DNA of 64,000 bases from Acidobacteriaceae bacterium (GTDB lineage: Bacteria > Acidobacteriota > Terriglobia > Bryobacterales > Bryobacteraceae): NCBI GenBank assembly GCA_019233755.1, contig JAFAMD010000006.1, forward strand, positions 100,043-164,042, written 5' to 3'. Numbering within the stretch: position 1 is the stretch's first letter; every line of letters starts with the position of its first letter. Below are positions 2,475-34,621 of this stretch, piece by piece. Under the pieces are notes generated by a model. That model searched no databases. It was not told the origin of the DNA and was given only the letters and a program-made list of their open reading frames with translations. Both the position numbers and the translations under genes were made by a program.

Positions 2475-3602
2475 TTAGAGCAATCGGAAGCTGACTTCTA
2501 CCTGGGCCTGAGTGGCGACCGGGTGACCGCCCTTCATACCGGGTCGGAAGCGCCACCTCGATACAGCTTCGACGGCCTTTTCATCCAGTCCCAGGCCGAG
2601 CGGACGCACTACGTGGATATCGCGCGGCAGACCATTGGCGTCAACCACAATGGAGAGCAGAACGGTGCCGGAGTACTTGGCTTTGCGAGCCTCTTCCGAG
2701 TATTCAGGCTCGACTTTACTCACCAGCACGGGCGCGGAAACATCACCGCCGATGCGGTACGCGCCGCCGCCCATCCCGTGGCCGGAGCCGGGACCGTATC
2801 CATCTCCATTACCGGAACCGAGTCCGCCGCCCGTACCACTCCCGAGACCATTTGAGCCCGGACCGCCGGAGAACGGCATCAGCTTGCTCATTGGGTCGCC
2901 GTAGTTGTCTGCAACGATCGGCGGAACCGGCGCGCTGATCTCAGGAACAACGGGCAGTTTCGGCTTGACAATGGCTTCGGCCGGCGGGATGAACGGTTTC
3001 GGATTGAACTTGGGAGCCGCGCCGTGGCTGACGGGTGTCGGCACCTTCTGGCCGCCACCGCCACCGCCGCCCGCTTTCTCCGCGGCAGGCGGAAGCTTCG
3101 GCTTAAATTCGTTAACAGGAAAATAGATGTCGGTGACCTGCTTGATCTTCTTCTGCACGAGGGGCGTACGAAAGACCAGGAACATCAGCCCGACCACCGC
3201 GACGTGGATCAGGACGGATACCAGACCCGACCGCTTTTCGCCGCCGCCGTAGGCACCCCAGATGCTGCCGACTTCGACCGGTTTGGAAGTAACTTCAAGC
3301 GGCGGGAGCTTGGGCGGGTGGACCAGGTCGCGAATGTTGGCAGCGAACGACTTGAACCACGGCTGCTCGATATTGCTCATGTTGCCGAGTTCGGCACTTT
3401 CGAGCGGCCGGGACGTCAGTTCCAGTGGGGGGAGCTTGGGCGGATTCAGCGCCTCCCGGATGTTTCGGATAACCGACTTGAACCACGGTTCTTCGAGATC
3501 AGCCGTCAAAAATAGCTGATTCAAATTAGCCTCAGGCTGAACCACATCCTGACGCCCCATAGTTTCCTTGTCTACTCCGCTAATCACCGAACACTCCGCC
3601 AT
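2475..3602 (-). CDS. TonB-family energy transducer protein
   Basis: Single TM segment, Pro/Lys/Gly-rich linker, C-terminal TonB domain (SGTVLLSIVVDANGLPRDIHVVRPLGLGLDEKAVEAVSRWRF). Confidence 0.85.
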   Translation of the reverse strand: MAECSVISGVDKETMGRQDVVQPEANLNQLFLTADLEEPWFKSVIRNIREALNPPKLPPLELTSRPLESAELGNMSNIEQPWFKSFAANIRDLVHPPKLPPLEVTSKPVEVGSIWGAYGGGEKRSGLVSVLIHVAVVGLMFLVFRTPLVQKKIKQVTDIYFPVNEFKPKLPPAAEKAGGGGGGGQKVPTPVSHGAAPKFNPKPFIPPAEAIVKPKLPVVPEISAPVPPIVADNYGDPMSKLMPFSGGPGSNGLGSGTGGGLGSGNGDGYGPGSGHGMGGGAYRIGGDVSAPVLVSKVEPEYSEEARKAKYSGTVLLSIVVDANGLPRDIHVVRPLGLGLDEKAVEAVSRWRFRPGMKGGHPVATQAQVEVSFRLL

Positions 3603-3717
3603 TTACCACGCTGTGAGCCTCCCTGCTGTCGACATCTGATGCATAAATTGGACGTTCGGTCCAAAATTGCCGTTGCAGGGATTCAATCCAGCACCACGAC
3701 AGTATCTACAGTCTATA

Positions 3718-4389
3718 TCAGAGACGAGCGCCACCATCATTCAGGGCGACACTTTCAATCAGAAAAATTCTCGATTCCTCCCAGATGGTGGGCAGCACAT
3801 CGGTCAGTTCGTGTCCGGATTTCATCTGGAGAAGCAGGGCGTTCGGGTGCGCCTGGACGAAGGCGAGTGATTGTTGAACCGGAACGGTTGAGTCCTCCGT
3901 CCCGTGGAAGATCAGCACCGGCTGGTGAACGTCGGGAAACGGCTCGAAGCGGCTGGCGTCTTCGAGCAATTGATAGCCCAGAGGCAGTTCCCGCTGTGCG
4001 GCGTAATGAAAGAAAAGCCTGGTGCCGTTACGCTTCCATTCGGCAATACGCTCCGGCCCGAGTTGTTCGACCCAAAGTTGATACAAGCCGAATGCGGGAG
4101 CGAGCAGAATGAGCCGGTCGACCTCGGGATGCCGTGCGGCATAGAGTGCGGCGAGGTAGCCGCCCATGCTGGATCCGATCAGGATTACCGGTTCGCCGCA
4201 AGCGATCTCCTCGAGCACGCTGAGCTGGCGGCTGATAGTCAGATGCTCAAAATCGCCCTGCTCCAGGTCTGGGACATGGACGTGCTGGCCCGCGGCTTCG
4301 AGGCATCCGAGGAAGAAGTTCGCCTTTCGTGATGCCGGGCTGGAGGCGAAGCCGTGAAGGTAGACGATACGCAAATGGTCCCGCAACAT
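3718..4389 (-). CDS. alpha/beta hydrolase (YqiA-like esterase)
   Basis: IVYLHGFASSP, nucleophile elbow GSSMGG, C-terminal Asp/His; start placed at MLRDHLRI. Confidence 0.8.
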   Translation of the reverse strand: MLRDHLRIVYLHGFASSPASRKANFFLGCLEAAGQHVHVPDLEQGDFEHLTISRQLSVLEEIACGEPVILIGSSMGGYLAALYAARHPEVDRLILLAPAFGLYQLWVEQLGPERIAEWKRNGTRLFFHYAAQRELPLGYQLLEDASRFEPFPDVHQPVLIFHGTEDSTVPVQQSLAFVQAHPNALLLQMKSGHELTDVLPTIWEESRIFLIESVALNDGGARL

Positions 4390-4595
4390 CTTCAATGGTA
4401 GCGGGAAGGCCGTTGGGTACCGCGCCTCGAAGACTTGCGAACAAGTACTCGGGACCGCTAGAATCTTGTTGAACTGAAAGAAAAAAACGCCCCGCCGATT
4501 CGCCCGCACCTGCACAGTGATGTAGCTTGGTGAGTTAGACTGAACACTTTGGCCCGGGAGTGCTGCGGGCATTTGCGAACACAGGAGATTAATTG

Positions 4596-4829
4596 ATGTC
4601 GGTTGCAGAAAAAGTAAAGCAGATCATCGTCGAACAGCTTGGAGTGGATGAGAACCAGGTTGACCCGAGCGCCTCGTTCGTGGACGATCTGGGTGCCGAT
4701 TCCCTCGACATTGTCGAACTGGTGATGGCTTTCGAAGAGGCCTTCGACCTCGACATTCCCGACGAAGACGCCGAAAAGATCAAGACCGTCAAGGACGCAA
4801 TCGACTACATAGAGTCGAAGAAGAAGTAA
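4596..4829 (+). CDS. acpP: acyl carrier protein
   Basis: [19 protein letters not shown] phosphopantetheine site; upstream of fabF; ATG at 4596. Confidence 0.97.
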
Positions 4830-4883
4830 TTTGAGTCCGCAGATTTCTTTACGCCAGCAAACGGCGCAGCGGATGATTTATTA

Positions 4884-6134
4884 ATGGCAGTACGCAGAGT
4901 TGTTGTAACAGGAGTTGGCCTTCTCTGTTCGGTGGGCAGCGGAACCGAACCGGTGTGGGAGGCGATACGGGAAGGAAAGGCCGGGATCGGCCCGATCACG
5001 CAGTTTGATGCCTCCGATTTCGCCTGCCGGATCGCGGGCGAAGTCAAAGATTTCGACCCATTGCAGTACGTCGATAAAAAAGACGTAAAAAAGATGGGAC
5101 GCTTCATCCAGTTTGCGATTGCAGCGAGCGATTTTGCGGTGCAGTCAGCCAAACTGGCGCCTCCAGCTTCCGAAGAAGATGCAGAACAGCGCGGTGTGTA
5201 CATCGGCAGCGGCATCGGCGGATTCGAGGTGATCGAGCGGGAGCACAAGGTCCTTCTCGAGAGAGGTCCGAGCCGGATATCGCCGTTCTTCATTCCCTCC
5301 TGCATCGTGAACCTGGCCAGTGGTTACGTTTCGATCCGCTATAACGCGAAGGGACCGAATTCAGCGACGGCCACCGCGTGCACCACCAGCGCGCACTCCA
5401 TTGGTGATTCGTTCCGGCTGATCCAACACGGCGACGCCGACGTGATGATTTCGGGGGGAAGCGAAGCGTGCGTGACCCCGATGGGAATTGGCGGATTTGC
5501 TGCCATGCGCGCGCTTTCCACTCGCAACGATGAACCGCAGCGCGCGTCGCGGCCATGGGATAGCGAGCGCGATGGCTTCGTGGTGGGTGAAGGCTCCGGC
5601 ATCGTGGTGCTTGAAGAACTGGAGCATGCGAGGCGGCGCGGCGCACCGATACTGGCCGAGATTGTCGGTTATGGAATGAGTGCGGATGCTCATCACATTA
5701 CGGCGCCGCCGGACGACGGCGACGGCGGCTATCGCGTCATGCGCAACGCTCTGCGCGATGCGGGCATCCAGCCGTCCGAAGTGCAATATGTAAATGCGCA
5801 CGGCACGTCGACGGGCCTGGGCGACAGGGCCGAAACGCTTGCTATCAAGAAAGCGTTCGGCGAGCATGCGGCAAAACTGGCCGTGAGTTCCACAAAGTCA
5901 ATGACCGGGCATCTGTTGGGCGGAGCGGGCGGCCTGGAGGCAGGCATTACCGTGCTGGCGATTCGCGACCAGATCGCGCCGCCGACGATTAACTACGAGC
6001 GCCCCGATCCGGACTGCGACCTCGATTACGTGCCTAATCGGGCGCGGCCCATGAAAATCAACTACGCGCTTTCGAATAGCTTTGGATTTGGCGGCACGAA
6101 CGGCTGCCTCATTTTCAAGCGCTATCAGGATTAA
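4884..6134 (+). CDS. fabF: beta-ketoacyl-ACP synthase II
   Basis: RRVVVTGVGLLCSVG, active-site Cys in ATACTTSAHSIG, NAHGTSTGLGD, SFGFGGTNG. Confidence 0.96.
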   Translation: MAVRRVVVTGVGLLCSVGSGTEPVWEAIREGKAGIGPITQFDASDFACRIAGEVKDFDPLQYVDKKDVKKMGRFIQFAIAASDFAVQSAKLAPPASEEDAEQRGVYIGSGIGGFEVIEREHKVLLERGPSRISPFFIPSCIVNLASGYVSIRYNAKGPNSATATACTTSAHSIGDSFRLIQHGDADVMISGGSEACVTPMGIGGFAAMRALSTRNDEPQRASRPWDSERDGFVVGEGSGIVVLEELEHARRRGAPILAEIVGYGMSADAHHITAPPDDGDGGYRVMRNALRDAGIQPSEVQYVNAHGTSTGLGDRAETLAIKKAFGEHAAKLAVSSTKSMTGHLLGGAGGLEAGITVLAIRDQIAPPTINYERPDPDCDLDYVPNRARPMKINYALSNSFGFGGTNGCLIFKRYQD

Positions 6135-6303
6135 CCTGCGTCCGTCCGCGGACGAAATTTCCCTACTTTGACCCTGGAGGCGTGCGGTCCTCAAGAAATC
6201 GCACGCTTCCCGAATTCGCGTCCGTCATACTGTTAAGAGAAACATTCAGCCGTCGCAGAATAGTACGGGTGCTTCGTGCTACCCGCCGACCGGCTATACA
6301 CGC

Positions 6304-7074
6304 ATGAAAATCATCGTTTCCGTGAAGCAGGTCCCTGCACGGGACTCCGCGCTCCGCGTCAACAGCGCGGGCAAGTGGCTGGACGAATCCGATATCACGT
6401 ACGAAATGAATGAACCGGACGCGTACGCCCTGGAAGAAGCGCTCCAGTTGAAAGAGAAGCTGGGCGGCGAAGTGGTGGTGTTGTGCGCCGGGCCACAGCG
6501 GGCGGGCCAGACCATCAGGGAAGCGCTCGCAAAGGGCGCCGATCGTGCGATTCACGTCGAGATGGACGAAGAGGGCCCGCTCGATGCTCTTGCCACGGCG
6601 CGGCTCCTGGCGAAGGCTGTGGCGCCGGAATCGCCGGAGCTCATCCTGACGGGATTGCAATCAGACGATCTCGGATACGGGCAGACCGGCGTAATTCTGG
6701 CGGAGCTGCTTGGGTACGCGCACGCCACGATCGTGATGGAAGTGGAGCCGCAAGGGAGCGCTGTGCGCGTGAAGCGCGAGCTCGAAGATGGCTGGTTTCA
6801 GAACGTGGTGCTGCCGCTGCCGGCGGTTCTCACGATCCAGTCGGGCATCAAGAAGCTGCGCTATGCAACGCTGATGGGCATCAAGAAAGCAAAGACTAAA
6901 GAAGTAAAAACACTTTCCGCCGGGCAGCTTGCTGCGGACACCAGCAGCACGACAGTGATGGATCGGGTATACCTTCCGCAGCGCAGCAAGCAGACGCAAA
7001 TACTCACAGGTGACGCGAAGCAGGTGGCGCATCAACTGGTAGAGAAGCTCAAATTCGAGGCACGGGTGCTATGA
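6304..7074 (+). CDS. etfB: electron transfer flavoprotein beta subunit
   Basis: MKIIVSVKQVPARDS..., TGLQSDDLGYGQTG; overlaps etfA by 4 nt. Confidence 0.95.
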   Translation: MKIIVSVKQVPARDSALRVNSAGKWLDESDITYEMNEPDAYALEEALQLKEKLGGEVVVLCAGPQRAGQTIREALAKGADRAIHVEMDEEGPLDALATARLLAKAVAPESPELILTGLQSDDLGYGQTGVILAELLGYAHATIVMEVEPQGSAVRVKRELEDGWFQNVVLPLPAVLTIQSGIKKLRYATLMGIKKAKTKEVKTLSAGQLAADTSSTTVMDRVYLPQRSKQTQILTGDAKQVAHQLVEKLKFEARVL

Positions 7075-8045
7075 GCGTCCTGGTCATCCTCGAGGAGCGC
7101 GGCGGCAAGTGGAATCGCCTTTCTTTCGAAGCGCTCGCAGCGGGCGAAAGAATCGCGGGAGCGCTCGGCGCGCCGTTACAAGCAGCAGTGATCGGCGCCG
7201 GCATTGAGAAACTGGCGAATGAGGCGGCGACCTACAAAATTGCAAAAATCTTTGCCGTGGAGCATGATCTGCTCGCGCGATACACGCCGGATGGTCACAC
7301 CGCAGCGCTGGAGCAACTGATCAAGGCGCAGCAACCGAAGGTGGTCGTGTTTCCTCACACCTACCAGGTGCGCGACTTCGGTCCCAAGTTGTCCACTCGT
7401 TTCGGCAAGGCGCTAATCAGCGATGTGGTGGATATAAAAACCGCCGGGGGCCAGGTCACTTTCATCCGCCAGCTTTTCCAGGGCAAGCTGAATTCGGATG
7501 TTCGTGCGGCGGGCGAGCCGGAATTCGTCTCCATTCAAGCCGGGGCATTCCGCGCGGCCGAGCCCGGCGGCGAGGCCGCGCCCGTCGAGAAGGTCGCGGC
7601 AGAGCTCGAGCCTTCACAGATCCGCACCAAGCCTGAAGAACCTTTTCGAGAAGCACAGCGCTCGGTAGATCTCAGTGCCGCCGACATCATTGTCTCGGTG
7701 GGGCGCGGCATCAAAGAAAAAGAGAATCTGCCGGTAGTGGAACAGTTGGCGTCAGTGCTCGGAGCGGAGCTCGCGGCTTCGCGCCCGATCTGCGACAACG
7801 GGTGGCTGCCCATGGAGCGGCAGGTTGGGAGCTCAGGCCAAACGGTTTCACCGAAAGTATATTTCGCCATCGGCATTTCAGGTGCGATTCAGCATCTGGT
7901 CGGCATGAAGGGCTCGAAGACAATAGTCGCGATCAACAAAGATGAGAACGCGCCTATCTTCGAGGCCGCCGATTACGGCGTGGTGGGCGATCTTTTCGAG
8001 ATTGTTCCCGCGATCGTAGAAGAAATCAGGAAAGCGAAAGCATAG
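7071..8045 (+). CDS. etfA: electron transfer flavoprotein alpha subunit
   Basis: VSVGRGIKEKENLPVVEQLASVLGAELAASRPICDNGWLPMERQVGSSGQTVSPKVYFAIGISGAIQHLVGMKGSKTIVAINKD. Confidence 0.96.
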   Translation: MSVLVILEERGGKWNRLSFEALAAGERIAGALGAPLQAAVIGAGIEKLANEAATYKIAKIFAVEHDLLARYTPDGHTAALEQLIKAQQPKVVVFPHTYQVRDFGPKLSTRFGKALISDVVDIKTAGGQVTFIRQLFQGKLNSDVRAAGEPEFVSIQAGAFRAAEPGGEAAPVEKVAAELEPSQIRTKPEEPFREAQRSVDLSAADIIVSVGRGIKEKENLPVVEQLASVLGAELAASRPICDNGWLPMERQVGSSGQTVSPKVYFAIGISGAIQHLVGMKGSKTIVAINKDENAPIFEAADYGVVGDLFEIVPAIVEEIRKAKA

Positions 8046-8051
8046 CGTTTG

Positions 8052-9095
8052 ATGAGAAGTTGCCCGAAATGGATCAGCCGTTGCGCTACCGGTGTGGCCG
8101 TCTGCGCCACGCTGACAATGCTTGCGAGTTGCAATCATCCTGTCTCGCGTGATGTGGCCGCGACCGTGAACGGCCGGCCAGTCACCTATGCGGAGCTGGA
8201 CCGCACCATTGCGGCGCAGTTCCCCAACGCGCCCCTGAAGCCCAGGTCGGATCAGACCATCCAGCTACGCCTGGAGACCTTGCGCGCCCTTATCGACAAC
8301 GAGATCATGCTGCAGCGCGCCGAAAAGGAAGGCCTGCTTGCATCCGACGCCGACGTGGAGGCAAAGTTCAACGAACTGAAAGCTCCCTACACACAGGAAG
8401 AGTTCCAGAAGCTGCTCGAACAGCGCAAGATGACAGTAGCGGACCTGAAGGCGCAAATCCGGCGCGAACTCAGCGTGCAGAAACTGTTCAACAAGGAGAT
8501 CGGATCGCACATTACTATTTCCGATGCCGATGTTGCAGCTTTCTATAAGGCGAACAAAGCCAGCTTTAATCTGCCCGAGGAAAAAATCCGGCTGGCGCAG
8601 ATTCTGGTAACTTCGGCGGCCGACAGCACGGTGAACAACCTGAAGAACGACAAGGCGCAGAACGATCAGCAGGCGCGCAACAAGATTCAGATGCTCGATA
8701 TGCGCGTGCGCCAGGGTGAAGATTTCGGCCAGTTGGCGCAAAACTACTCGGAGGATCAGTTCGCAGCCAACGGCGGCGATGTCGGTTTCGTGCCGTTGTC
8801 CGCTCTCGACAAAGCCAATCCCGAAATCCGCAAGGTCGTTATGGACATGACTCCGGGCCAGGTCTCGCCAGTGCTGCACACGCCTGAAGGCTATCGCATT
8901 ATCAAGCTGATTTCGAAAGAACCGGCCGGCCAGCGCGAATTGAGCGATCCGCGCGTGCAGGAAGAGATCCGGCAGGGACTGTTCCAGGCGAAAGAGCAGA
9001 TGTTGCGCTCCGCTTTTTATGAGGTTGCGCGCAGTGAAGCAAAAGTCGTGAACTACTACGCCGAATCGGTGCTCGCCAGCCGTGATAAGGGCTGA
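8052..9095 (+). CDS. peptidylprolyl isomerase, SurA/parvulin-like lipoprotein
   Basis: Signal/lipobox-like LASC, SurA_N-like ATVNGRPVTYAELD, parvulin domain (RLAQILV...GGDVGFVPLSALDKANPEIRKVVMDMTPGQVSPVLHTPEGYRIIKL). Confidence 0.88.
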   Translation: MRSCPKWISRCATGVAVCATLTMLASCNHPVSRDVAATVNGRPVTYAELDRTIAAQFPNAPLKPRSDQTIQLRLETLRALIDNEIMLQRAEKEGLLASDADVEAKFNELKAPYTQEEFQKLLEQRKMTVADLKAQIRRELSVQKLFNKEIGSHITISDADVAAFYKANKASFNLPEEKIRLAQILVTSAADSTVNNLKNDKAQNDQQARNKIQMLDMRVRQGEDFGQLAQNYSEDQFAANGGDVGFVPLSALDKANPEIRKVVMDMTPGQVSPVLHTPEGYRIIKLISKEPAGQRELSDPRVQEEIRQGLFQAKEQMLRSAFYEVARSEAKVVNYYAESVLASRDKG

Positions 9096-27461: not shown

Positions 27462-30103
27462 GCGACTTCTTCTGCTTCTGCCACACCTGCGGACGCCGGC
27501 AATTCTTCGATGAGACGGCCGGAATGAACGCGAATGCGCCGCCAGAAACCTCCCGACCACAATCCGGTGCGCGTCTGCTTTTCTGCCTCCAGCAGTTGGG
27601 AGTAACGCGATGCCCGGTTCGCGGCCAGTTCGCGCGGAGTGCCGTGTTCGATTAAACGGCCGCGCTCGATGACCAGCACGCGATCGAAACTCTGCGTCTC
27701 CGCGACATCGTGGGTGATGCACAGCAGAGTCGCATGACACCAGAGCCTGCGCGCACGGAGCAGCAGCTCCGATCGCTTTTCGCGATCGAGGCCTCGGAAC
27801 GGCTCATCGAGAATTACCAGCCGCGTGTTCTGCCGGAGCAGCGCACGCGCCAGCCGCACGCGCTGCCCTTCGCCGCCCGAAACAAGCCCGCCGCTTTCGC
27901 CCAGCTTCGTTTGCAAACCCGACGGCAGTGTTTCGAGGACACCGCGCAGCATGGCTTCGTCAATCGCCTGCGCGACCGATGCGGGATCGGGAGCCGAGCC
28001 ATAGGAGAGGTTGTCGACAAGGGAACGGTTCCAAAGTTGAACCGCCGGGTCCACCCAGGCCACGGAGCGGCGTAGTTGATCTGGATCTAGCGGAGCGCCG
28101 CCGGCCAGTACTTCTCCTTTGCTTGGTTTCAGCCAGCCGAGAAGGATACCGACAAGGCTGGACTTCCCTGCCCCGGAAGGACCGACAATCGCGATGTGAC
28201 TCGCCGGCGCAATGTTCATATTTATCGCGTCGAGAATGGTATGTCCGGCAACTTCGACGCTTACATCGCGGAACTCGAGAGCGGGTGCGCCCGGCGCCGA
28301 TCTCTCGTCTGATCGATCAATGTTCGACGACTCCTCGGGTGCACCGAGCGGCTCAAGAAGACGAAGGGTGAGATTCCGGTAAGCGGGATATTGGCGCGTC
28401 AATGTGCCGAACTCCTGCCCGAGCACAGGCAAGTTCAGCGCCCAGTAGACAAGTAGCAACAAACGCCCGACGGCCGCACCCTGCAGCGGATGAAGAAGCA
28501 TCAGCGCCGCAATGAGACCGAACATGCCAGTAAGTTGGACGGCTTCTGCGGCGACCACACCGCGCTGCAGCCGGACCGAGGCGCTCGCCCACTCGCCGAG
28601 CAGTTTTTCGTGTTCGCGGCGGACGGCGCGCTCTCCGCCGTGCGCACGTATGGCGAGCAAGCCGAGCATGGCATCGAGGTAGAACCGGGTCAGGCCGGCG
28701 GCGTGACTGCGGACGCGTAGATCGCGCTCGGCAAGAAGTGGTTGTGACACGAAGGCTGGAATCACCGCGGCTGCGAGGATCACGATGACAAACGGAGCAG
28801 CCGACGGTTCGAGCCAGACAATTCCTGCAGCCATTGCGAACATTTCGAAAAGGGCGCGCAGTGCCTGCCTGGCGGCATTCGGGAGGTCGCGAAGCCGCTG
28901 CGCCGCGTGGCTGCGCTCCGCCATATCGGAGGTGAGGCGGCTCTGAAAGTAGCGATCGCCGAGCTTTGGGATCTTTTCGAGAAAGGCCACTCGCAGCCGG
29001 TTTTCGATCTGGCGTCCCAGGCGCAGGGCGGCGGAGAACAGAGGGAATTCCATCAGCAGCAGGATCAGACTGAACAGAATTACGGCGCCAATAGCCGCCA
29101 TCCGCTGCCCGCTGATACGCAGTTGGGCGGTGACGTCGAGCAGGGCCCGGAAGAGCAATGCTTCGACGATCGTCCCACCGGCCGCGACGATCAAAGTGAA
29201 GAAGACGAGAACAGGAGTAAGTCGGCTGCTCTGCCGAAGCGCGCGCCATAACTCGCGGCTTGGGCGAAAGGGGTGCTCAGCGAGGGCAGCGGCGAGTTCG
29301 GAGCCGAGTTCCGCGCGCGAGGCGATCGGCCCGGTTCCGCGCACACACACCAGCACCGCTCCGCGGAGGAGTATTTGTTCACAGCCTTCGCTGTCTTGTG
29401 GAGCGGTGCGCACGGACCAGCAATGCTGCGGGATTTTTTCCGGTTCCGACCGAAAGCGTTCGATCAGGGCGAGGACGTCGCGCCCGCCGCGTACCGCACC
29501 CGCATCACAAAGTAATCGAAGAAGACGGGCGGATGCATCGAGCACCGCGATCGAACGCCAGCTTTCGTCGTTCAGAACATCGCTGAGCAAACGATTCTGC
29601 ACCATGCGGTTGAGGCCGAGGCGATGAAGCCGGGCACCAAGAACGCTTTGAAAATCTTCGGAAGCTGCATAGTCGCGCCAATCCTTAGCGGAAGCCGGCA
29701 TTGTGTGAGAGTAAATTTCAGCCAGAAATTGCTTCGCCGGGACCCACCGCCGCCCGATTGCAGGATCCATAACCTGCAGCATCCGGCCGTGCCGTCGCCA
29801 CACGACAACAAAGTGCGTCAACCCACCTGGCAGGTTGACGACTACAATGGCCGGCAATGCGTTTGCCTCCGGCACGAGCAAATGATCGGCCGGAATCATG
29901 ATCTGCTCCGCTTCGAGGCCGAGTTGCTTCGCGACGGTCTCGAGCGTGTCGATGCAGGTACCATCGACCCCGGTCTGACAGGCTTCACGCAGGCGGCCGT
30001 AGCTGATGGGAATGCCAAAACCTTCGAGCAGGCATTTCAGTGCGGCGGGGCCGCAGTCCATGGCGGAAGTTTGAACAATCTCAGGGACAAAAAAGCGTCT
30101 CAA
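27458..30103 (-). CDS. peptidase-domain (C39) ABC exporter
   Basis: N-terminal C39 motif QTSAMDCGPAALKCLLEGFG, catalytic-His region LTHFVVVW and Asp region VMDPAIG; Walker A GPSGAGKSS, signature VSGGE, Walker B LVILDEP. Confidence 0.92.
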   Translation of the reverse strand: MRRFFVPEIVQTSAMDCGPAALKCLLEGFGIPISYGRLREACQTGVDGTCIDTLETVAKQLGLEAEQIMIPADHLLVPEANALPAIVVVNLPGGLTHFVVVWRRHGRMLQVMDPAIGRRWVPAKQFLAEIYSHTMPASAKDWRDYAASEDFQSVLGARLHRLGLNRMVQNRLLSDVLNDESWRSIAVLDASARLLRLLCDAGAVRGGRDVLALIERFRSEPEKIPQHCWSVRTAPQDSEGCEQILLRGAVLVCVRGTGPIASRAELGSELAAALAEHPFRPSRELWRALRQSSRLTPVLVFFTLIVAAGGTIVEALLFRALLDVTAQLRISGQRMAAIGAVILFSLILLLMEFPLFSAALRLGRQIENRLRVAFLEKIPKLGDRYFQSRLTSDMAERSHAAQRLRDLPNAARQALRALFEMFAMAAGIVWLEPSAAPFVIVILAAAVIPAFVSQPLLAERDLRVRSHAAGLTRFYLDAMLGLLAIRAHGGERAVRREHEKLLGEWASASVRLQRGVVAAEAVQLTGMFGLIAALMLLHPLQGAAVGRLLLLVYWALNLPVLGQEFGTLTRQYPAYRNLTLRLLEPLGAPEESSNIDRSDERSAPGAPALEFRDVSVEVAGHTILDAINMNIAPASHIAIVGPSGAGKSSLVGILLGWLKPSKGEVLAGGAPLDPDQLRRSVAWVDPAVQLWNRSLVDNLSYGSAPDPASVAQAIDEAMLRGVLETLPSGLQTKLGESGGLVSGGEGQRVRLARALLRQNTRLVILDEPFRGLDREKRSELLLRARRLWCHATLLCITHDVAETQSFDRVLVIERGRLIEHGTPRELAANRASRYSQLLEAEKQTRTGLWSGGFWRRIRVHSGRLIEELPASAGVAEAEEVA

Positions 30104-31254
30104 GGGGCCCCCACCGCCTGACCGGCAGAGCGCAGAACCAAGGCGGCCGGCGAGAGGTCCTCCACTTCGACCTCGACTGAGCCGGGGAGTCCATGCTGTA
30201 CAGGAATGTGAGAAGAAGCGGACGAGATGACGGCCAGCTCGACCCGGACTTTGCCGTCGCGAATGTCATCTGCAACACGCGTAACACGCGCTGACAGAGT
30301 GCCGAACTGAGCCCACGGGAATCCTTGCAGGCGCACGATAGCGGGCTGGCCGGGGCGCAGCTTGCCGAGCGCAGCCGAGGGCGTAAAGGCGGCGACGACC
30401 TGCAGCTTGCCTGAAGGAAGGATGATGCCGAGCTGCTGCCCTTCCGTGATGTAGGAACCGGGACGGATACCGGCGCACTCGCCGAGTCGGCCCGAAGTTG
30501 GCGCACGCAGGCAGCGGCGCTCCACTTCGTATTCGAGGCGACTGATAGCGGCAGCAGAAGCAGCAGCTTCGGCTTCGAGTTTCGCCGTGTCGGCCTGGAT
30601 CTGCTTTTGCCGTACTTCGCGATCGCGCTCCCGAACGGTCAGTTCGGGTTCAAGGCGTGCAATCGTCACCTTCAAGTTGTCCGCCGCGGCACGCCTGCTT
30701 TGGGCCTCCGCTTTGGCGCGCTGCATATCGGCATCCGAAAGAATGCCTTCCGCATGAAGGCGGACGGCGCGGCCGGCATCCTGCGCGGCGAGGTCGGCTT
30801 GCGTCTGCGCTTCGCGATATTGGGCGCGTGCAGCGGCGATGGAGAGGTCAAGCACCCGGCGTTCGTCAGCGCGCCCGGCAGCTTCGGTCTGCATTCGTGC
30901 GCGCAGCGCGGCAAGCTGGGGCGCGAGGCTGGCGAGATGAACGCGCTCCTGCTTTAAGGCGAGGAGCTGATCCTCATTGTCGAGCTGTAAGATAGCGTCT
31001 CCTGCTTTGACTTCGTGCCCGAGGATGAGGTGGGAAGAGACTACGCGTCCGGCCATATTCGACTGAACGGGATAAGCGGCACCGAGCACTTCAAGGCGGG
31101 CGGAATCGGCGACTTCGTAGCGGGTTAGATGCGCTGTGAAAGCCCAAGTCACCCAGGCGGCGAGCAAGGCCAGCGCCAGAAGCGGAGAGAGAACAGAGTG
31201 GAGTCCGTTGTCGGAGCGGAGAGCCCCATTTACACGATGAAAGCTGGTCGCCAT
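30100..31254 (-). CDS. HlyD-family membrane fusion/periplasmic adaptor protein
   Basis: N-terminal TM, biotinyl-lipoyl-like NMAGRVVSSHLILGHEVKAGDAILQLDN, long coiled coil, RAPTSGRLG. Confidence 0.9.
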   Translation of the reverse strand: MATSFHRVNGALRSDNGLHSVLSPLLALALLAAWVTWAFTAHLTRYEVADSARLEVLGAAYPVQSNMAGRVVSSHLILGHEVKAGDAILQLDNEDQLLALKQERVHLASLAPQLAALRARMQTEAAGRADERRVLDLSIAAARAQYREAQTQADLAAQDAGRAVRLHAEGILSDADMQRAKAEAQSRRAAADNLKVTIARLEPELTVRERDREVRQKQIQADTAKLEAEAAASAAAISRLEYEVERRCLRAPTSGRLGECAGIRPGSYITEGQQLGIILPSGKLQVVAAFTPSAALGKLRPGQPAIVRLQGFPWAQFGTLSARVTRVADDIRDGKVRVELAVISSASSHIPVQHGLPGSVEVEVEDLSPAALVLRSAGQAVGAP

Positions 31255-31326: not shown

Positions 31327-31350
31327 TGTTCGGCCAAAAAATGCCGAACA
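31327..31350 (-). other. Stem-loop immediately 3' of the 16-aa ORF
   Basis: 8-bp inverted repeat tgttcggc/gccgaaca with 8-nt loop. Confidence 0.7.
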
Positions 31351-31355
31351 GGTAA

Positions 31356-31406
31356 TTACGCACCCCAGACGGCGCGGCCAGCCTTAACGTTGCTCTTGAC
31401 TTTCAT
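31356..31406 (-). CDS. 16-aa small ORF MKVKSNVKAGRAVWGA, candidate exported or leader peptide of the exporter locus
   Basis: ATG with AGGAGG (31417-31422, minus strand) 10 nt upstream; stop TAA; below the length cutoff of the ORF track. Confidence 0.6.
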   Translation of the reverse strand: MKVKSNVKAGRAVWGA

Positions 31407-31431
31407 GATTGCTTTTCCTCCTTTCTCAGGT

Positions 31432-31466
31432 CCGGGTTCCCGCTGGCGGCGGGATCTCGAACCCGG
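31432..31466 (-). promoter_or_regulatory. Hairpin in the 5' leader of the 16-aa ORF
   Basis: 8-bp inverted repeat ccgggttc/gaacccgg enclosing a second cccgc/gcggg stem, directly upstream of the SD. Confidence 0.65.
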
Positions 31467-31703: not shown

Positions 31704-32333
31704 CTAGCGCACAGGGGCAATCTTGACCAACTGCGTGCGGCACTCATGGCGAATGGTGCAGGAGGTGGGGTGCAGCTCTTTACTGAGGCAAATATCGACG
31801 CCCTGAAGATATGGGCCACGGCAACTCAGTTCGACCGCGGCGGGAGGCAATCCGGGGTTCGCCTCGACAAATGAGCGCACGACAGCGGCCGGGCTCGCCC
31901 GCATTTCGCTGCGCGGGGCGAGGAATGGACGGGGGATACGAATCGACTCGAACGCCTGGCGGACAAGAGCGAAGTAGGCATCTGCATTGAGACCGCTGCA
32001 GGTTCCATGGGCCGCCCATTCGTGGCGGATAAGGCCGGGATCAGGCATGATGCGCAGGTAGCTGTGAATGTCCGCCGGGCCTGGGGCATGCGAACAGAAC
32101 TCGGGACCGTAGCCGTTGCGAGATTGAGGCCAGAGGCCATGCACGATGAAGCCGTAATGCTCGGAGCACTCCGGACTGCTCTGGTGGTTGTAACAGAACT
32201 CGGGAGACCACGAAAGGCTGAGCACGTAGTAATCGAAATCACCTGGGCGCGCCGATCGCTCCTGAGGAAAGATGCATGACGCTCCAAGACTCGTGAGCAG
32301 GAGCAACCAACGCAAGCCAAATTTCGAGTGCAT
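31704..32333 (-). CDS. secreted ribonuclease T2 family protein
   Basis: Signal peptide; conserved CAS I FIVHGLWPQ and CAS II HEWAAHGTC. Confidence 0.93.
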   Translation of the reverse strand: MHSKFGLRWLLLLTSLGASCIFPQERSARPGDFDYYVLSLSWSPEFCYNHQSSPECSEHYGFIVHGLWPQSRNGYGPEFCSHAPGPADIHSYLRIMPDPGLIRHEWAAHGTCSGLNADAYFALVRQAFESIRIPRPFLAPRSEMRASPAAVVRSFVEANPGLPPAAVELSCRGPYLQGVDICLSKELHPTSCTIRHECRTQLVKIAPVR

Positions 32334-32413: not shown

Positions 32414-33253
32414 ATGAAGTGGCAAGTAAGCGCTCTGGTTCTGATCTGCGCGGCGGCGTGCGTTGCGGCCGCTCACGCGTTGGACCGGACGCTTCCCCAC
32501 GCGTTTCGCGAGTACCCGGGCATAGAGTACCGGCTCGGATCGATTCCGTTGCCGCCTGATTACCAGGAAAAGACGGAGTGGGCATTCGCGCGCCTGATGT
32601 ACCCGGGCGGCTGGAACGACGGTTATGCCGGGCGCGAGGGCGAGTGGCATGAAGGCGCCTGCCTGTGGACGCAGGATTTTCCGCGCGCCGATCGCCATTT
32701 CTCCGAGGCAGTGAAACGGCTGACGAGAATCAGCGTGCGCTCCGTGGAACAGCCCGTGAACCTGGACGACGGCGATGACGTCTACAACTGGCCCTGGCTG
32801 TATGCGGTGCAGGTGGGCGAGTGGGGTATTACGGATGGGCAAGCCAAGAAGTTGCGCGACTACCTGCTGCGCGGCGGCTTCTTCATGGCCGATGATTTTC
32901 ACGGCACCGAGGAGTGGCAGGTCTTTGAAGCGAGCATGAAGCGCGTCTTTCCGGACCGGACCATCGTGGATATACCGGACAGCGATCCGATCTTTCACAC
33001 CGTTTATGATCTAGACGACCGCTACCAGATTGTGGGCGCAGAGCATCTGGCGGAGGGTCACAAAAAGGACGGCTTTGTAGCACGCTGGCGTGGCATCTAC
33101 GACGACAAAGGCCGCGTCATGGTGGCAATCTCGTTCAACTCCGACATTGGCGATTCGTGGGAGTGGGCCGATGAGCCGGAGTACCCGGAGAAATACTCAG
33201 CGCTGGGCATTCGCGTCGGCATCAACTACATCGTTTACGCCATGACCCATTGA
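32414..33253 (+). CDS. DUF4159 domain secreted protein (copy A)
   Basis: EKTEWAFARLMYPGG...VEQPVNLDDGDDVYNWPWLYAVQVGEWGITDGQAKKLRDYLLRGGFFMADDFHG. Confidence 0.85.
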   Translation: MKWQVSALVLICAAACVAAAHALDRTLPHAFREYPGIEYRLGSIPLPPDYQEKTEWAFARLMYPGGWNDGYAGREGEWHEGACLWTQDFPRADRHFSEAVKRLTRISVRSVEQPVNLDDGDDVYNWPWLYAVQVGEWGITDGQAKKLRDYLLRGGFFMADDFHGTEEWQVFEASMKRVFPDRTIVDIPDSDPIFHTVYDLDDRYQIVGAEHLAEGHKKDGFVARWRGIYDDKGRVMVAISFNSDIGDSWEWADEPEYPEKYSALGIRVGINYIVYAMTH

Positions 33254-33745: not shown

Positions 33746-34621
33746 TCAGTGGGTCATGGAATAGACGATATAGTTGATGCCGACCCGTATACCGAGGGCG
33801 GAGTATTCTTCGGGGTACTCGGGATCATCGGCCCACTCCCAGGAGTCGCCCAGGTCGGAATTGAAGGCCATGGCGACCATGACCCGGCCCTTGTCGTCAT
33901 AGATGCCGCGCCAGTGGGCGACGTATCCGTCATTGCGGAAGGGCACGCCCATGCGTACACCCCACTCGCCGGGGACCTGATATCGATTGTCGAGATCGTA
34001 GACAGTGTGAAAGATGGCGTCGCCGTCCGGGATCTCGACAATCGGGCGATCCGGAAAGATGCGCTTCATGCTGTTTTGAAATACGTTCCAATCGACGGTT
34101 CCCCAGAAGTCGTCGCACATGAGAAAGCCGCCGCGGAGAAGGTATTCGCGGAGTGTAAGCGCCTGCATATCAGTCAGTTGCCACTCGCCGACAAAGACTG
34201 CGTAGAGCCAGGGGTAGTTGAACACGTCGTCTTTGTCATCGAGGTTGACGGGCTGCTCGACGGATCGGGCCTGGAGGCGGGTCAGACGGCGGACCGCCTG
34301 AAGAAAGTGGCGGTCCGCCCGGGGGTAATCGTTCGTCCAACTGGAATGGCCTTTGGTCCAATCCCATCCGGCGTGCCGGAAATGCGCATCGGGGATAGAC
34401 GGATACATAAGGCGGGCGAAGACCCATTCGGTTTTTTCTTCAAAGTCGGGCGGAAGGGGGATCTGGCCCTCGTGATATTCATCGCCGGGATACTCGCGGA
34501 AAGGTTGAGGAAGATTGCGCTGGGCGGCGTAAAGGGCGGTCAGCACACTGAGTCCGCAGGCGAGCCAGGAGAAGGTTCTCCGCCAAGACATCAGCACCGG
34601 GCCTCGCCCCGAGAATAGCAT
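33746..34621 (-). CDS. DUF4159 domain secreted protein (copy B)
   Basis: Clear paralog of 32414-33253 over its full length. Confidence 0.85.
   Translation of the reverse strand: MLFSGRGPVLMSWRRTFSWLACGLSVLTALYAAQRNLPQPFREYPGDEYHEGQIPLPPDFEEKTEWVFARLMYPSIPDAHFRHAGWDWTKGHSSWTNDYPRADRHFLQAVRRLTRLQARSVEQPVNLDDKDDVFNYPWLYAVFVGEWQLTDMQALTLREYLLRGGFLMCDDFWGTVDWNVFQNSMKRIFPDRPIVEIPDGDAIFHTVYDLDNRYQVPGEWGVRMGVPFRNDGYVAHWRGIYDDKGRVMVAMAFNSDLGDSWEWADDPEYPEEYSALGIRVGINYIVYSMTH

What the first reader, a model, noticed from the sequence alone, without database searches (positions are those of the whole stretch)
31356..31406. Unannotated 16-aa peptide gene (MKVKSNVKAGRAVWGA) heading a C39 peptide-export locus
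Seen directly: on the minus strand an ATG...TAA ORF of 16 codons with a strong SD (GAAAGGAGG, AGGAGG 10 nt upstream). It lies about 100 nt upstream of HlyD, C39-ABC and a second ABC gene on the same strand. Established: C39-peptidase ABC exporters with HlyD adaptors usually secrete small peptides encoded nearby, cleaving after GG/GA/GS. The peptide is basic, has one Trp and ends in GA, so cleavage at that site would release no core. No modifying enzyme is visible. Inference: a minimal, possibly leaderless exported peptide, a fragment of a repeat-type peptide family, or a regulatory leader peptide. From memory only, K(V/I)KxNVKAG strings occur in small unannotated proteins of related bacteria; I could not check this.
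Basis: partly seen in the sequence, partly recalled or inferred. Interest (0 to 1): 0.8.

Follow-up and report, generated by a model that had tools for sequence, protein, structure and literature searches.

The report
Ultra-short exported peptides with ten-residue leaders
A 16-residue gene that a reader spotted by eye in a soil acidobacterium proves to belong to an apparently undescribed family of tiny bacterial peptides found in several phyla, each with the same ten-residue address tag and a different short tail, travelling with a dedicated peptide-cutting exporter.

Summary
The 16-codon ORF is real and under selection. Same-genus genomes keep its Shine-Dalgarno, its position before HlyD-C39ABC-ABC and the peptide: pN/pS is about 0.20 in codons 2-10 and 0.61 in codons 11-16. 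One scan of 84,980 species with the N-terminal pattern (chance expectation about 0.07) gave 42 loci in at least six phyla. They encode a near-invariant MK[VI]K[ST]xVKAG followed by hypervariable 4-50 aa tails, often in tandem; Microbulbifer rhizosphaerae has 25 copies before its exporter. Genomes found by peptide alone carry the window's C39-ABC in 26 of 33 cases, against 11 of 392 random genomes of the phylum. Starting instead from exporters in Microbulbifer relatives found new acidic variants (MxxETDIxAGP) nearby. The C39 triad is invariant and the predicted fold matches PCAT1. The leader differs from known double-glycine leaders: 10 aa, AG instead of GG/GA/GS, no -12 or -7 hydrophobic, strand-like i/i+2 periodicity. 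Best reading: residues 1-10 are an ultra-short C39 export signal and RAVWGA is the exported core. Not shown: expression, cleavage site, activity. No matching Pfam or NCBIfam family or paper was found.

The parts
31356..31406 (-). peptide gene, MKVKSNVKAGRAVWGA, including stop
31377..31406 (-). codons 1-10, conserved export/processing signal MKVKSNVKAG
   Evidence: M-K-h-K-[ST]-x-V-K-A-G near-invariant in 94 distinct peptides; pN/pS 0.20
31359..31376 (-). codons 11-16, variable core RAVWGA
   Evidence: xxxW[GAD][ASVP] in the genus; aromatic at +4 in a third of genome groups
31417..31424 (-). Shine-Dalgarno AAAGGAGG
   Evidence: kept in relatives
31432..31466 (-). hairpin directly upstream of the SD; present before the eight genus copies compared, with paired changes; not a feature of other phyla
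31327..31350 (-). short hairpin after the stop codon
31272..31318 (-). intrinsic-terminator-like hairpin with T run between the peptide gene and HlyD
   Evidence: structured 3' flank (z < -2) in 49% of 100 family copies
30100..31254 (-). HlyD-like membrane-fusion protein
   Evidence: PF13437
27458..30103 (-). C39 peptidase-ABC exporter, invariant Q11/C17/H97/D113
   Evidence: PF03412, PF00664, PF00005
25380..27740 (-). second ABC exporter subunit without C39; the listed ORF overlaps the C39-ABC, so the true start probably lies nearer 27450
   Evidence: PF00005; TIGR03797-like below cut-off

Best explanation
The ORF is a minimal precursor of an exported peptide. Residues 1-10 (MKVKSNVKAG) are an ultra-short signal that docks into the C39 domain of the adjacent exporter; alternating residues V3, S5, V7, A9 plus G10 suggest an extended strand instead of the helix known for double-glycine leaders. 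C39 most likely cleaves after Ala-Gly and the HlyD/C39-ABC/ABC machine exports the six-residue core RAVWGA. Shown: the gene is under selection, its N-terminus is a family signature across phyla, it co-occurs with this exporter, and the peptidase triad is intact. Inferred: transcription as a short terminated mRNA, recognition mode, cleavage site, and a role of the core as signal or competition molecule.
For: Genus conservation and pN/pS. 42 loci in Acidobacteriota, Myxococcota, Chloroflexota, Gammaproteobacteria, Planctomycetota and delta-proteobacterial genomes; conserved decapeptide with hypervariable tails, tandem copies. Exporter in 26/33 peptide-found genomes against 11/392 random phylum genomes (Fisher p about 1e-26), and in all three peptide-positive random genomes. 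HlyD-C39ABC-ABC order in the exporter loci read. Exporter-first test: new MxxETDIxAGP peptides beside Microbulbifer exporters; generalised motif 56 hits against 0-1 for permuted motifs in 27 exporter loci. A Piscinibacter homologue lies in a DUF692/TfuA cluster whose 57-aa ORF carries KAKVNVKLG-P inside, as expected for a signal at a leader/core junction. C39 triad invariant and fold like PCAT1/LahT.
Against: No expression, cleavage or secretion data. AG is not an established C39 motif; leaders in solved complexes use helix residues -4, -7, -12 (PMC6363468, PMC6959990), which a ten-residue leader largely lacks. Proline at +1 in about 7 of 45 genome groups is an awkward P1' residue. 7 of 33 peptide genomes showed no exporter at E<=1e-40 (several are MAGs), and most peptide loci lack the exporter within a few kb. 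The background rate was measured only in the window's phylum. 25 of the 56 motif hits come from one array and 16 more from its near relative.
Confidence: 0.74

Rival explanations
1. The whole 16-mer is exported uncut; the decapeptide is a retained docking tag (for example one strand of a beta-hairpin with a turn at AG[P/G]).
For: Proline at +1 in many members, strand-like alternation on both sides of AG in the Microbulbifer peptides; tails as short as 4 aa.
Against: The C39 Cys/His/Asp/Gln set is invariant in all exporters compared, unlike non-cleaving HlyB-type domains; sharp change from conserved to hypervariable at AG.
Confidence: 0.15
2. The peptide is a RiPP precursor whose core is modified by an enzyme encoded elsewhere in the genome.
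For: A related exporter in Piscinibacter sits in a DUF692/TfuA cluster with the same signal in a longer ORF; conserved Trp at +4.
Against: No tailoring enzyme among the flanking genes scanned and no recurrent one near 42 peptide loci or 20 exporter loci; no N-terminal extension for enzyme recognition in the 10-aa leader.
Confidence: 0.12
3. Regulatory leader peptide or attenuator controlling the downstream exporter operon.
For: Short ORF, upstream hairpin and downstream terminator before HlyD.
Against: Amino-acid-level conservation across phyla, tandem copies, genes unlinked to exporters, variable tails; upstream hairpin essentially confined to the genus.
Confidence: 0.06
4. Chance ORF with no product.
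For: Sixteen codons with an SD occur by chance.
Against: (conservation, 42 loci against about 0.07 expected, pN/pS 0.20).
Confidence: 0.01

Closest known systems
C39 peptidase-containing ABC transporters (PCAT1, LahT, ComA) with double-glycine leaders
   Same: C39-TMD-NBD architecture, same catalytic residues and fold; N-terminal conserved signal followed by variable cargo; hydrophobic Val at -4.
   Different: Leader of 10 aa instead of 15 or more, AG instead of GG/GA/GS, Lys at -7, no -12 residue, strand-like instead of helix-like periodicity; cargo may be only 4-8 aa.
NHLP/Nif11 export system (TIGR03794/03796/03797; PMC2887384)
   Same: Three-gene exporter HlyD + C39-ABC + second ABC; precursors scattered and multicopy; leader and exporter co-occur across phyla.
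   Different: All three proteins score far below the NHLP cut-offs; no nitrile-hydratase or Nif11 leader; no linked tailoring enzyme.
Microcin V-type type I export (CvaA/CvaB; PMC10231218)
   Same: Gram-negative C39 exporter with HlyD-type adaptor and short N-terminal signal.
   Different: MccV signal is 15 aa ending GG, cargo 88 aa, with an immunity gene; here no immunity gene is seen and there is a second ABC.

Membership tests
C39/PCAT exporter (the transporter) | C39 domain with Gln-Cys-His-Asp plus TMD and NBD | tested here: met
Double-glycine leader peptide (the 16-mer) | GG, GA or GS directly before the core | tested here: not met
   AG in all 94 strict-motif peptides (the search itself required AG, but broader looks found AG or VG, not GG/GA/GS)
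Double-glycine leader peptide (the 16-mer) | Hydrophobic residues at -4, -7 and -12 on a helix | tested here: not met
   -4 Val present; -7 is Lys; no residue -12 (requirement from PMC6363468, PMC6959990)
Double-glycine leader peptide (the 16-mer) | Cleaved by the cognate C39 domain | not testable with these tools
   Needs biochemistry
NHLP export system | HlyD + C39-ABC + ABC trio in order | tested here: met
NHLP export system | TIGR03794/03796/03797 scores above curated cut-offs | tested here: not met
   43 of 156, 192 of 853 and 112 of 709 bits
RiPP biosynthetic cluster | Linked tailoring enzyme | tested here: not met
   None in the flanking genes scanned, none recurrent in relatives; an unlinked enzyme is not excluded
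Known small-peptide family in Pfam/NCBIfam | Significant hit | tested here: not met
   such short queries have little power

The most novel reading that the evidence does not exclude
A cross-phylum secretion system for hypervariable oligopeptides (4-10 aa), with a ten-residue beta-strand-type C39 signal, acting as a bacterial signalling or competition peptide system; nearby STPK-TPR and HTH-NB-ARC-TPR proteins may be its sensors.
Probability: 0.3. Interest if true: 0.9.

Novelty: new variant of a known kind. Interest (0 to 1): 0.78.

Why it matters
These genes are too short for standard gene callers, yet occur in at least six phyla with a dedicated exporter. If the signal works as inferred, it is the smallest C39 export signal known to me and shows a second way for C39 peptidases to read a substrate. 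It gives a motif for mining, a cultivated test strain (Microbulbifer rhizosphaerae CECT 8799, 25 genes) and a short tag of possible use in peptide secretion.

Tried and rejected
Terminal GA as cleavage site: not conserved (GA, AS, DS, GD, GT...). Upstream hairpin as a family-wide RNA element: strong mainly in the genus; no Rfam family. HlyD similarity as a marker of the system: remote HlyD hits are generic. Modifying enzymes near the peptides: no recurrent one. Single-sequence AlphaFold of HlyD: low confidence, not used. Literature searches for the motif strings and for C39/HlyD/Acidobacteria found nothing relevant. Microbulbifer relatives first seemed to have exporters without peptides under the K-type pattern; a broader look found the acidic variants.

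Full report
Observation. The ORF, its SD and its neighbours are as described. Between the ORF and HlyD lie a short hairpin and a strong terminator-like hairpin, and a further hairpin stands immediately before the SD, so the peptide is probably made from a short transcript of its own with some readthrough (inference).

Genus-level test. A pattern for KVKxNVKAG found the same gene in three of sixteen other genomes of the genus and nowhere else among 60 relatives, with no hit for the reversed control. HlyD-centred loci added further copies: VKIKSKVKAGRALWGA, two in G005, MKVKSKVNAGNTNWGV and MKVKSSVGAGRTFWGP. G001 carries a relic lacking a start codon beside HlyD and an intact copy on another contig. 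Nine sequences give pN/pS 0.20 for codons 2-10 and 0.61 for codons 11-16: coding, with a constrained front and a relaxed tail. Position +4 is Trp in all nine.

Wider family. A scan of one genome per species (84,980) with SD + MK[VI]K[ST]xVKAG returned 42 stretches; expectation under uniform base composition is about 0.07. The pattern says nothing about what follows AG, yet nearly all are short ORFs of 14-60 aa. In 94 distinct peptides the first ten positions are almost fixed apart from position 6 (partly by the search pattern), and the tail is hypervariable in length and sequence. Aromatic residues are concentrated at +4 (33% of 45 genome groups; 0-10% at other tail positions). Microbulbifer rhizosphaerae carries 25 such genes just upstream of its exporter. 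Some Acidobacteriota have precursors repeating the motif with NHNQ-type spacers, and G374 has the motif after a 30-residue extension.

Link to the exporter. Of 33 genomes found through the peptide alone, 26 encode a homologue of the window's C39-ABC, all with best E below 1e-90 and mostly 42-65% identical over nearly the full length. In 392 genomes spread over the phylum only 11 do, including all three that had the peptide. The genes are often unlinked, as for NHLP precursors and their exporters (PMC2887384). A reverse test started from the exporter: 14 of 117 genomes of the M. rhizosphaerae set (itself included) have the related HlyD, all followed by C39-ABC. The K-type pattern missed 12 of them, but of six inspected four had M-x-x-E-T-[DN]-[IV]-x-A-G-P ORFs and another had two M-x-I-E-x-x-I-x-V-G ORFs within the 16-kb stretch. 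The generalised motif M.h.[TSN].[VI].[AV]G gave 56 hits in 27 exporter loci; permuted motifs gave 0 or 1. Conservation at odd positions with Lys/Glu exchange at even positions is what a strand with one buried face would show (inference).

Piscinibacter. The only plasmid hit to the C39-ABC (39%) lies in a cluster with MoeB, DUF692 and TfuA proteins, and a 57-aa ORF there contains ...LKAKVNVKLG-PIPFIAG.... A probable modified-peptide precursor with the same string inside, at the expected leader/core border, fits a C39 signal.

Exporter anatomy. C39 residues Q11, C17, H97 and D113 are invariant in 46 sequences. The profile aligns with PCAT1, ComA and LahT, and the AlphaFold model (pLDDT 92) superposes on PCAT1 with its substrate and on LahT with its leader. 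It is therefore predicted to be an active protease. Its NHLP family scores are far below cut-off.

Mechanism. Best reading: an N-terminal export signal, cleaved after AG, releasing RAVWGA. Known C39 leaders bind as a helix with hydrophobics at -4, -7 and -12 (PMC6363468, PMC6959990); here only -4 fits. Proline at +1 in several lineages leaves an uncut, tagged export form possible. Function is open: no immunity gene or modifying enzyme recurs. TPR-bearing kinases (Acidobacteriota, Myxococcota) and HTH-NB-ARC regulators (Chloroflexota) recur nearby, but both are common in those genomes (own knowledge) and no enrichment was computed.

Limits. Background was measured in one phylum; many source genomes are MAGs; sequence alone cannot show translation or cleavage. 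The paper library is open-access only, so an existing description elsewhere cannot be excluded.

Noticed in passing
L133 (Microbulbifer rhizosphaerae, G522:C2:259000-278000), 2924-8331 +: 25 tandem peptide genes of 17-22 aa, each with its own SD, directly upstream of HlyD-C39ABC-ABC.
   Followed up: yes
L178 7356-7529 + (Piscinibacter gummiphilus plasmid NZ_CP136338.1): 57-aa ORF with KAKVNVKLG-P inside a DUF692/TfuA/MoeB cluster next to a related exporter; likely RiPP precursor using the same signal.
   Followed up: partly
L123, L124, L125, L128, L132, L041, L043, L074: Ser/Thr protein kinases, several with TPR repeats, recur near exporters or peptides; L124 fuses kinase, TPR, GAF and sigma-54 activator domains.
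   Followed up: partly
L045, L065, L078, L079 (Chloroflexota): NB-ARC proteins and their relatives (HTH-NB-ARC, some with TPR) lie near the peptide genes.
   Followed up: partly
L009 (G001:C129), about 1321 on the minus strand: Relic of the peptide gene (GIKSKSKVKAGQSIGSS, no start codon, Trp lost) beside HlyD, while an intact copy lies on another contig.
   Followed up: no
window 31704-32333 -: RNase T2 family protein just upstream of the peptide gene.
   Followed up: no
window 32414-33253 + and 33746-34621 -: Two DUF4159 proteins on opposite strands within 2.3 kb.
   Followed up: no
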